A stretch of DNA of 64,000 bases, from the NCBI GenBank assembly GCA_017505525.1, contig JAFVPB010000056.1, positions 1 to 64,000 of the forward strand, given 5' to 3'. The first letter of the stretch is position 1. The number at the start of each line of letters is the position of its first letter. The stretch is from Clostridia bacterium. GTDB taxonomy: Bacteria; Bacillota; Clostridia; UMGS1883. Below are positions 4,001 to 44,831 of this stretch, piece by piece. Both the position numbers and the translations under genes were made by a program. Below the pieces are notes generated by a model, which worked only from the letters and a program-made list of their open reading frames with translations, did not search any database and had not been told where the DNA came from.

Positions 4001-4516
4001 ATGAATTTACAAGAACGTAAGAGAACAAGATTAAAAGGGTACAATTATTCTCACATTGGTGCATATTTTATTACGATATGCGTGAAAGACAGAGAAGAGA
4101 TATTATCTGAAATAATTGTAGGGGATGGCGTCCTCGACATCCCGAAAAATATATTAACACAGTATGGAGAAACGGCAACGAGGATTATAAATCAAATGGG
4201 CAGTTTTTATGATAATATTAGTATTGATAAGTATGTTGTTATGCCTAATCATATACATTTCATATTAAGAGTTTCAGAGAAACAAACAGAAAATGGGACG
4301 TCGGGGACGCCGTCCCCTACAAATTTCGTTGTATCAAAATTTGTATCTTCATATAAAAGATTTTGCAATAAAGAATATGGCAGAAATATATGGCAGAGGT
4401 CATATCACGACCATATAATCAGAAATGAAAAAGATTATATGAAGATATGGGAATATATTGATACTAATATTAATAAATGGGAAAAGGATTGTTTCTATAC
4501 TAAAAAGCCACAGTGA
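4001..4516 (+). CDS. REP-associated tyrosine transposase (RAYT, Y1_Tnp family)
   Basis: A 171-residue HUH-superfamily single-strand nuclease. The metal-binding His-x-His is in VMPNHIHFIL, and the C-terminal WQRSYHDHIIRNEKDY block is diagnostic of RAYTs. These domesticated single-copy transposases recognise small palindromic repeats scattered in their genome. The start at 4001 (MNLQERKR) fits the family better than an upstream in-frame ATG inside the dehydrogenase gene. The coding sequence itself holds two oppositely oriented copies of a structured repeat, read in frame as residues about 39-48 (VGDGVLDIP) and 99-108 (GTSGTPSPTN). A third copy sits 40 kb away. The stop codon lies within a terminator hairpin. 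Confidence 0.88.
   Translation: MNLQERKRTRLKGYNYSHIGAYFITICVKDREEILSEIIVGDGVLDIPKNILTQYGETATRIINQMGSFYDNISIDKYVVMPNHIHFILRVSEKQTENGTSGTPSPTNFVVSKFVSSYKRFCNKEYGRNIWQRSYHDHIIRNEKDYMKIWEYIDTNINKWEKDCFYTKKPQ
4116..4144 (+). repeat. REP-like structured repeat, copy 1 (inside the RAYT gene)
   Basis: This 29-bp element begins TTGTAGGGGATG and ends CATCCCG, forming a hairpin around a GGCGTCCTCGA core. It matches copies at 4295-4323 (inverted) and 44803-44831. Stem bases differ between copies but remain paired. Confidence 0.75.
4295..4323 (-). repeat. REP-like structured repeat, copy 2 (inside the RAYT gene, inverted)
   Basis: On the minus strand this reads TTGTAGGGGACGG then CGTCCCCGACGTCCC. It is the inverted partner of copy 1, about 150 bp away, so the two could fold into a longer REPIN-like hairpin in single-stranded DNA or RNA. 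Confidence 0.75.
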
Positions 4517-4543: not shown

Positions 4544-5905
4544 TTATTCTTCGTTTAATGCAATTTTCATCATTAATGCACATTCAATTCTCTTTTTAAA
4601 GAGCTCGCATCCGTATTTATAAACGCCTTTTATATCGCCTGTGGCGTTAAAAGCATTGGCACTGCATCCGCCAGCACAATAAAGCTTAGCCCAGCAGTTT
4701 TCGCAATCGGGGCGTGTGTAGGCATTACAGGAAGCAAATTTATCGCGCAGAGCTGTGTTTGTAACTCCGTCGTAAATGTTTCCCATGCTATATTCATCAT
4801 TTCCTACAAACTGATGGCAGGGGAAAAGCTCGCCCCAGGGGGTAACTGCCATATATTCAGTTCCCGAGCCACATCCCGCAACACGTTTGTAAATACAAGG
4901 ACCACCCGTTAAATCTATCATATAGTGATAAAACGTGAAACCATTACCTGCTTTTTTACGCTTAATCATCTCGATAGCAAGCTTTTCATACTGATCAAAA
5001 AGTGTGGGGAGGTCTTCTTCCGTAAGGGCGCAAGGGTCGCCTGGAGGGCACACCACAGGCTCCATACTAAGCTCGGTAAATCCCATATCTGCCATGTGCA
5101 GAATATCGGTTAAGAAATCGGTGTTGTGATGCGTGAATGTTCCGCGCATATAATAACTCTTATTTCCGCGCTTTTCCACAAATTTTTTGAAGTTGGGAAG
5201 AATTTTATCGTAGCTTCCCGCACCGTTATAATCCTTGCGAAAACGATCGTGAACTTCTTTTCTTCCGTCGAGGCTTAAAACAACGTTGTGCATTTCTCGG
5301 TTGCAGAATTCAATAACCTCGTCGTCAAGCAACACACCGTTTGTTGTGAGGGTGAATCGGATGTTTTTATTGTGTATTTTCTCCTGCTCTCTTGCATAAG
5401 CTACAATTTCTTTCACAACATCCCAGTTCATAAGAGGCTCGCCACCGAAGAAATCCACGTCAAGATTCTTGTGATTCTGCGAGTTTTCTATGAGAAAATC
5501 GATTGCTCTTTTTCCCGTTTCAAGGCTCATAATCGCGCGGTCGCCGTGATATTTTCCCTGTGATGCAAAACAGTAAGAGCAGTTGAGATTGCAAATATGA
5601 GCAACGTGGAGGCAGAGGGCTTTTACCGCGATGTTTTCACGGCGATAGTTTTTAGCTATTTCCTTAAAAGTATCCTCGGAAAAGAGCTTGCCGCTTTTTT
5701 CGAGTTCTTTGATATCTTCTAAGCATTCAGCTATTTCTGCTTCGCTCACACTGTGCTTTTTTGAGATTTTCTTTGTTATTTCCTCAAATGAGTGCGATTT
5801 AAACATAGCTATAATATCATAGGCAACTTCATCAACAAGATGAACAGAACCGCTGAATATATCGAGCACGATATTATAACCGTTGAGTTTATATTGATGT
5901 ATCAT
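4544..5905 (-). CDS. scfB: SCIFF peptide radical SAM maturase
   Basis: A 453-residue radical SAM/SPASM enzyme that installs a Cys-derived thioether crosslink in the SCIFF (ranthipeptide) precursor encoded just upstream. The N-terminal block MIHQYKLNGYNIVLD is the peptide-recognition (RiPP-recognition-like) region typical of this family. The radical SAM cluster ligands are Cys106, Cys110 and Cys113 (CNLNCSYC). The C-terminal SPASM region carries the auxiliary-cluster cysteines (for example GCGSGTEY, FPCHQF, PDCENCWAKLYCAGGC). I chose the ATG at 5905 because AAAGG precedes it and the family begins there; an upstream in-frame ATG at 5920 would add five residues. Enzyme and peptide are separated by a hairpin that may set their ratio. 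Confidence 0.93.
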   Translation of the reverse strand: MIHQYKLNGYNIVLDIFSGSVHLVDEVAYDIIAMFKSHSFEEITKKISKKHSVSEAEIAECLEDIKELEKSGKLFSEDTFKEIAKNYRRENIAVKALCLHVAHICNLNCSYCFASQGKYHGDRAIMSLETGKRAIDFLIENSQNHKNLDVDFFGGEPLMNWDVVKEIVAYAREQEKIHNKNIRFTLTTNGVLLDDEVIEFCNREMHNVVLSLDGRKEVHDRFRKDYNGAGSYDKILPNFKKFVEKRGNKSYYMRGTFTHHNTDFLTDILHMADMGFTELSMEPVVCPPGDPCALTEEDLPTLFDQYEKLAIEMIKRKKAGNGFTFYHYMIDLTGGPCIYKRVAGCGSGTEYMAVTPWGELFPCHQFVGNDEYSMGNIYDGVTNTALRDKFASCNAYTRPDCENCWAKLYCAGGCSANAFNATGDIKGVYKYGCELFKKRIECALMMKIALNEE

Positions 5906-5925
5906 ATTAAAACCTTTCATAAATA

Positions 5926-34599: not shown

Positions 34600-34619
34600 A
34601 ATTTAATATATTCACACAG

Positions 34620-34808
34620 AGTGTCGGTTATGCTGAGTTGGTATAATCGGTGAAAAGGGAACGAGGTGAGAATCCTCGGCGATAACTGTCGGTGTATGCA
34701 TCGAAGTTTTTATATCCGTTGGTGAAAGCCAGTCATTGGGAAACTGAGAAGGCAGGATATAAAAATGCAGATTTTATAATCTATATGGTGCGAGCCACAA
34801 GACCTGCT
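34620..34808 (+). ncRNA. Cobalamin (adenosylcobalamin-type) riboswitch
   Basis: The core elements are recognisable in order: GGTGAAAAGGGAAC near 34649, GGTGAGAATCC near 34665, GCCAGTCATTGGGAAACTGAG with AAGGC at 34728-34753, and the B12 box AGCCACAAGACCTGC at 34793-34807. A long stem (TTTTATATCC near 34709 with GGATATAAAA near 34756) brings the parts together. The B12 box differs at two positions from the consensus as I recall it. It controls the downstream five-gene corrinoid operon. Confidence 0.9.
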
Positions 34809-34914
34809 TTGATATTATTCTGTAAGTGCTTTTGCATAGGGGTAATGTTTTTGTTGCGCTTTGAAAAGTGCTTGTTTTGGTGCGCGCAAATTGTGATTAA
34901 TCACAGGAAAACTC

Positions 34915-44802: not shown

Positions 44803-44831
44803 TTGTAGGGTTCGGCGTCCTCGACGAACCG
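44803..44831 (+). repeat. REP-like structured repeat, copy 3
   Basis: Begins TTGTAGGGTTCGG and ends CGACGAACCG. It matches the two copies inside the RAYT gene, with compensating changes in both arms of the stem. Confidence 0.75.

What the first reader, a model, noticed from the sequence alone, without database searches (positions are those of the whole stretch)
4116..4323. RAYT transposase gene carrying two inverted copies of its probable target repeat inside the coding sequence
Repeats at 4116-4144 and 4295-4323 are inverted copies of one 29-bp hairpin element; a third lies at 44803-44831. The stem pairs differ between copies (GGGATG/CATCCC, GGGACG/CGTCCC, GGTTCG/CGAACC) yet always stay paired, which is covariation expected for a selected structure. 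RAYTs are thought to mobilise such REP/REPIN elements. Here the elements are translated in frame as part of the enzyme, so the gene may have been invaded by its own elements or may regulate itself through them.
Basis: partly seen in the sequence, partly recalled or inferred. Interest (0 to 1): 0.7.

Follow-up and report, generated by a model that had tools for sequence, protein, structure and literature searches.

The report
Transposase gene containing its own hairpin targets
A bacterial transposase-like gene carries, inside its protein-coding sequence, an inverted pair of the DNA hairpins that this kind of enzyme is thought to cut and spread; nearly all of its relatives in gut clostridia do the same at the same two places with different but always matching hairpins, so the DNA structure is being kept and not the peptide it encodes.

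Summary
Window 4001-4516 (+) encodes a REP-associated tyrosine transposase (RAYT/TnpA_REP, subclass 2.4 type). Two GTAG-tagged REP hairpins lie in frame inside it: e1 4116-4144 (+ strand, before the HuH motif) and e2 4294-4322 (- strand, after it), tags outward. They are not a recent accident. Of 108 distinct full-length relatives (mostly Oscillospiraceae/Clostridia), 102 carry at least one such hairpin and 84 at least two, normally at the same two sites (190 hairpins against 6.7 in synonymous shuffles). Stem sequences and peptides differ, yet stems stay paired (covariation 0.477 against 0.144), the tag codons are invariant (GTA GGG 84/84), and e1 and e2 of one gene share a class (72/87; 17 expected). 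G.T wobbles fall on the tag strand in both orientations, which points to single-stranded DNA rather than mRNA. Some genomes keep the pair with no detectable dispersed REPs. In-frame REPs inside subclass 2.4 RAYT genes were already reported (Quentin 2018, PMC6006769); the conserved inverted pair, its covariation and its maintenance are new. Likely mechanism: the enzyme's own cis targets, co-evolving with it. Self-regulation or seeding is inferred, not shown.

The parts
4001..4516 (+). RAYT / TnpA_REP gene, 171 aa; HuH motif NHIH (residues 83-86), WQ (131-132), catalytic-type YIDTN (152-156)
   Evidence: ORF; Pfam Y1_Tnp 20.3 bits, below the cut-off of 23; profile match to 4er8 TnpA_REP E=1.2e-9; AF2 model pLDDT 86.5; Foldseek 4er8 E=5e-7, TMq 0.59
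4116..4144 (+). Embedded REP e1: TTGTAG tag (GTAG at 4118-4121) plus hairpin GGGATG..CATCCC; read in frame as V-G-D-G-V-L-D-I-P; lies in a beta-turn
   Evidence: same site in 92 of 107 relatives
4294..4322 (-). Embedded REP e2, inverted: tag plus hairpin GGGACG..CGTCCC; read on the + strand as N-G-T-S-G-T-P-S-P-T; lies in a low-confidence loop between the HuH strand and the next helix
   Evidence: same site in 98 of 107 relatives
44803..44831 (+). Dispersed intergenic REP of the same loop class (stem GGTTCG/CGAACC)

Best explanation
The gene is a RAYT (TnpA_REP subclass 2.4 / group 4 type) that carries its own cognate REP as an inverted, tag-outward pair inside the coding sequence, in effect a REPIN-like unit of about 207 bp containing the HuH-coding segment. 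SHOWN: the pair sits at two fixed positions in most clostridial relatives; it is maintained as DNA (tag, stem pairing, strand-specific mismatch) while the encoded peptides vary freely in surface loops; e1, e2 and the enzyme lineage change class together. INFERRED: the folded tag strands are binding/cleavage sites for the enzyme on its own gene when that gene is single-stranded (e.g. at replication), which keeps enzyme and substrate linked and co-evolving. The likely consequences are self-limitation of the enzyme (negative feedback or occasional self-destruction) and carriage of a seed copy of the REP when the gene moves to a new genome. Which of the two is selected is not decided here.
For: 190 GTAGGG hairpins in 108 genes against 6.7 in synonymous-codon shuffles. 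Density 3.57/kb in RAYT against 0.042/kb in other long ORFs of the same loci. Covariation of e1 elements chosen by tag only: 96.7% of cells paired, score 0.477 against 0.144+-0.017, 59 two-sided changes. Where the residues are Val-Gly the codons are GTA GGG in 84/84, against 25% and 18% elsewhere. Stem wobbles are G.T on the tag strand in both e1 (+) and e2 (-): 14 G.T or T.G against 3 A.C. e1 and e2 share a class in 72/87, 17 expected. The class follows the protein tree: 24-25 changes against 50-60 when shuffled. Chakrabartyella piscis: 714 dispersed matches, and RAYTs each with their own e1/e2 class, several of the same loop classes as dispersed copies. Intact pairs in genomes without REP excess: G003, G164, G172. 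Where e1 is missing, a + strand REP lies just upstream in 8/15 against 12/92, p=0.001. RAYT remnants break or collapse at e1/e2 in several genomes.
Against: No binding, cleavage or expression data exist for this subclass. Recurrent copying of REPs into these loops could also keep stems perfect. Palindromes are unstable in themselves, so breakpoints at e1/e2 need no enzyme. Five of the eight upstream-REP cases belong to one clade. A few relatives lack both elements (L150, L152, L096) and still look intact, so the pair is not essential for the protein. Many sources are metagenome assemblies.
Confidence: 0.5

Rival explanations
1. Passive self-homing: two loops of the protein tolerate any 9-10 residue insert; REPs landed there in an ancestor and are continually rewritten by REP-to-REP copying or gene conversion driven by the enzyme, with no cis function.
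For: Both elements encode surface loops and are read in different frames in some genes (e1 of L153; e2 in frames 0, 1 and 2). Tandem duplications occur: e2 in L103/L084/L110 and an in-frame array of about nine or more units at e1 in L178. Two RAYT paralogues in the window's genome share a near-identical middle with diverged ends.
Against: Intact pairs persist where there is virtually no REP pool to copy from (G003, G164, G172). Only 21 of 80 same-length e1/e2 pairs are identical, and 20 of 27 stem differences are compensated locally. Position and orientation are nearly fixed across the clade.
Confidence: 0.3
2. mRNA-level control: e1 and e2 are near-perfect reverse complements, so the transcript folds into a 28-bp duplex around the HuH-coding segment that limits translation or invites RNase III.
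For: The predicted mRNA of the gene pairs e1 with e2, z=-6.4 against shuffles.
Against: Wobbles in e2 are G.T on the minus strand, i.e. A.C in the mRNA. Local hairpins tolerate e1/e2 differences that would break the long duplex. The G.A mismatch is kept on the tag strand in both orientations.
Confidence: 0.12
3. The peptides encoded by e1/e2 are functional protein loops and the DNA hairpins are a by-product.
For: Within one class the peptide is similar (VGDGVLDVP; GTSGTPSPT).
Against: Peptides differ completely between classes (VGEGLCALP, VGATIGRP, VGRDDPGAP) while the DNA tag and stem persist. Synonymous shuffles destroy the hairpins. The tag codons are invariant.
Confidence: 0.03

Closest known systems
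TnpA_REP subclass 2.4 (Quentin et al. 2018, PMC6006769; group 4 of Bertels)
   Same: NH[IFV]H, WQ and Y-x-x-x-N motifs; GTAG REPs with three G-C pairs at the stem base; [quoted passage not shown]
   Different: Described for Cyanobacteria, Bacteroidetes and scattered phyla; the text read does not mention a second conserved element before the HuH motif (e1), a fixed inverted pair, covariation, or clostridial breadth.
E. coli TnpA_REP (PDB 4er8) and its REPtron
   Same: Same fold; single-stranded, strand-specific GTAG-hairpin recognition reported for E. coli TnpA_REP (PMC8266576).
   Different: E. coli REPs flank the gene (PMC6006769) and have a bulged stem; here they are inside the gene.
REPIN (inverted REP pair; PMC3116915)
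   Same: Two inverted REPs of one family with a spacer.
   Different: Here the spacer is the HuH-coding part of the transposase; mobility of the unit is not shown.
Intragenic GTAG REPs (Di Nocera et al. 2013, PMC3733652)
   Same: GTAG REPs translated within genes.
   Different: Those hit unrelated genes, mostly at different sites; here the enriched host gene is the RAYT itself.

Membership tests
RAYT / TnpA_REP | HUH (Y1) fold with HuH motif and a Y-x-x-x-N catalytic helix, similar to 4er8 | tested here: met
   (Y153 and N157 invariant in A3 numbering)
RAYT / TnpA_REP | Associated with dispersed GTAG-tagged palindromes in the genome | tested here: met
   74 matches against 7 in control for the window's genome
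RAYT / TnpA_REP | Cleaves cognate single-stranded REP | not testable with these tools
   needs biochemistry
TnpA_REP subclass 2.4 | Motifs NH[IFV]H, WQ, YIxNNP | tested here: met
   Window has NHIH, WQ and YIDTNI (Pro absent); the clade consensus is YIDTNP. No subclass HMM was available.
[quoted passage not shown]
   e2 in 98/107 genes
TnpA_REP subclass 2.4 | Places inside subclass 2.4 in a phylogeny with the published subclasses | not tested
   The published alignment was not available
REPIN | Inverted pair of REPs of one family with a short spacer | tested here: met
   e1/e2 orientation; the unit is longer than typical REPINs
REPIN | The unit itself is copied as a mobile element | tested here: inconclusive
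   Middle-segment duplications and e1-e2 collapse in G033/G026 contigs, metagenome assemblies only
IS200/IS605 insertion sequence | Y-x-x-x-Q helix, DH[VI]H, terminal hairpins bounding the whole transposase gene | tested here: not met
   Y-x-x-x-N and NHIH; hairpins lie inside the gene

The most novel reading that the evidence does not exclude
The embedded inverted REP pair is an obligatory cis-acting self-target: the enzyme acts on the folded single strands of its own gene, giving self-limitation and a heritable physical link between enzyme and substrate, so that a horizontally moved gene brings the founder copy of a new REP family.
Probability: 0.35. Interest if true: 0.78.

Novelty: new variant of a known kind. 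Interest (0 to 1): 0.6.

Why it matters
How REP/REPIN populations start, stay matched to their domesticated transposase and persist is an open question. A clade in which nearly every enzyme gene carries its own recognition hairpin gives a ready catalogue of more than 80 enzyme-substrate pairs read from one gene each. That makes recognition codes directly testable and makes self-targeting a concrete hypothesis. It is also a clear case of DNA secondary structure overriding peptide sequence within a coding region.

Tried and rejected
Recent single invasion of one gene: rejected by conservation at the same two sites across the clade. Peptide-level constraint: rejected by the codon and shuffle tests. 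Rfam: no family matches the hairpins. The first genome-contig scan with the single protein found nothing, so an alignment was used instead. The idea that the Tyr in SYHDH is catalytic was dropped: the published motif places it in YI-x-x-N, invariant here. Exact coincidence of gene-conversion borders with e1/e2 in the two paralogues: not seen, the shared tract extends past both.

Full report
CHECK OF THE OBSERVATION. The 29-nt hairpins are present, with the inverted copy in register at 4294-4322. Three matches occur in the window and none in 100 shuffles. All three fold on the GTAG strand into a 6-bp stem, a G.A mismatch, 2 bp and a tetraloop, and the tag strand is the more stable one each time. 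The third copy lies between convergent ORFs. Genome-wide the window's genome has 74 TGTAGGG...CCG matches against 7 for the reversed control. Among the REP loci fetched from it, almost all copies outside the RAYT are intergenic by a simple ORF test; the exceptions overlap short reverse-strand ORFs of 102-156 aa.

THE GENE. 4001-4516 encodes 171 aa. Pfam Y1_Tnp scores 20.3 bits, just below its cut-off, but a profile of relatives finds E. coli TnpA_REP 4er8 (E=1.2e-9), and the AlphaFold2 model (pLDDT 86.5) matches 4er8 and IS200-type transposases. The e1 peptide forms the turn between two short strands (model residues 41-49) and the e2 peptide lies in a low-confidence loop (about 93-108) between the HuH strand and the next helix.

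THE RELATIVES. Two near-identical paralogues in the same genome, broken at contig ends, carry e1 and e2 at the same places with other stems. Relatives from the genus, family, order and class and 80 loci from named clostridial genomes (found with peptide patterns outside e1/e2) gave 108 distinct full-length genes. A strict hairpin scan finds both elements in 67, e2 only in 21, e1 only in 7 and neither in 13. Several of the 'neither' genes have degenerate, G.T-paired or frame-shifted elements on inspection. With a scan that allows G.T pairs, 102 of 108 genes have at least one and 84 at least two hairpins: 190 in all against 6.7 after synonymous shuffling. Density is 85-fold that of other long ORFs in the same loci. 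A Monoglobus plasmid (L198) and a faecal phage contig (L199) carry the pair too; a Chloroflexota RAYT (L196) has none inside but many flanking REPs.

DNA, NOT PEPTIDE OR mRNA. Elements chosen by the tag alone show 96.7% paired cells and a covariation score of 0.477 against 0.144 shuffled and at most 0.141 for slid registers. Where the residues at the e1 start are Val-Gly, the codons are GTA and GGG in 84 of 84 genes, against 25% and 18% elsewhere. Peptides differ between classes, and the same hairpin is read in another frame in L153. Wobble pairs are G.T on the tag strand both for e1 (coding strand) and e2 (template strand), and the G.A mismatch keeps its orientation on the tag strand; for e2 these would be A.C and C.U in the mRNA. 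The e1:e2 duplex predicted in mRNA is therefore probably a consequence of inversion.

CO-EVOLUTION. In one gene e1 and e2 are 93% identical against 73% when shuffled between genes and of one class in 72 of 87 (17 expected). Class maps onto the protein tree, built without the e1/e2 columns, with 24-25 changes against 50-60 shuffled. In Chakrabartyella piscis, a closed genome with 714 pattern matches, the RAYTs carry different classes (GCGTCC, ATTCCATAT, GATTCACGAATC, GTCTCGAC and others), several with the same loops as dispersed copies. Other genomes hold an intact pair but no REP excess: G003 4 hits against 5 in control, G164 1 against 1, G172 4 against 7. The pair therefore does not depend on a standing pool.

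ARRANGEMENT. Tags point outward in all genes with both elements. When e1 is missing, a + strand REP lies within 150 nt upstream in 8 of 15 genes against 12 of 92 (p=0.001; not corrected for kinship). Some broken relatives are cut or collapsed at the elements: N-termini lost at the 5' edge of e1 (L208; L218), genes ending at the 3' edge of e1 (L036, L201/L202), and e1-e2 collapsed to a GTAG...CTAC palindrome (L213, L203). This is the 'double foot' form that Quentin et al. proposed to arise by central deletion. Other remnants break elsewhere (L204; L200, L209). One contig has an in-frame array of 42-nt REP units at e1 (L178).

PRIOR KNOWLEDGE. Quentin et al. [quoted passage not shown] The key motifs match here. 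The phenomenon is therefore known. The conserved second site before HuH, the inverted pair, its covariation, the strand evidence, persistence without a pool and the clostridial breadth were not found in the papers read. The library holds only open-access papers.

JUDGEMENT. The anatomy and DNA-level maintenance are well supported (about 0.95). That the elements are the enzyme's own cis targets is the most economical reading (about 0.5). Passive self-homing is the main rival.

Noticed in passing
L178 (G033 C53) 1060-1450: RAYT whose e1 site holds an in-frame tandem array of about nine or more 42-nt REP units (VGAIHESSESPAH repeats) on a metagenome contig.
   Followed up: partly
L213 (G026 C38) 545-585: RAYT pseudogene in which e1 and e2 have collapsed to a single double-foot palindrome GTAG...CTAC, a plausible birth of a double-foot REP.
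   Followed up: yes
L179/L182 (G033): Two contigs share a fusion of one RAYT into the e1 start of another RAYT class; L182 also has its e1-e2 segment deleted.
   Followed up: partly
G000 contigs C4/C7 and C24/C31 (L032-L035): Two RAYT paralogues with diverged ends and a near-identical middle, suggesting gene conversion (or assembly mixing).
   Followed up: partly
L201/L202, about 480-800: RAYT remnant ending at e1 directly upstream of a gene that reads like the GTPase Der/EngA, in two genomes of one genus.
   Followed up: no
G258 (Chakrabartyella piscis): 714 GTAG REP pattern matches of many loop classes in one 3.4-Mb chromosome; several classes have no RAYT among those found.
   Followed up: no
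window 34602-34825 (+): Cobalamin riboswitch (Rfam RF00174, 57.7 bits).
   Followed up: no
window 4544-5920 (-): Radical-SAM/SPASM-type maturase ORF convergent with the RAYT (read from its cysteine motifs, not searched).
   Followed up: no
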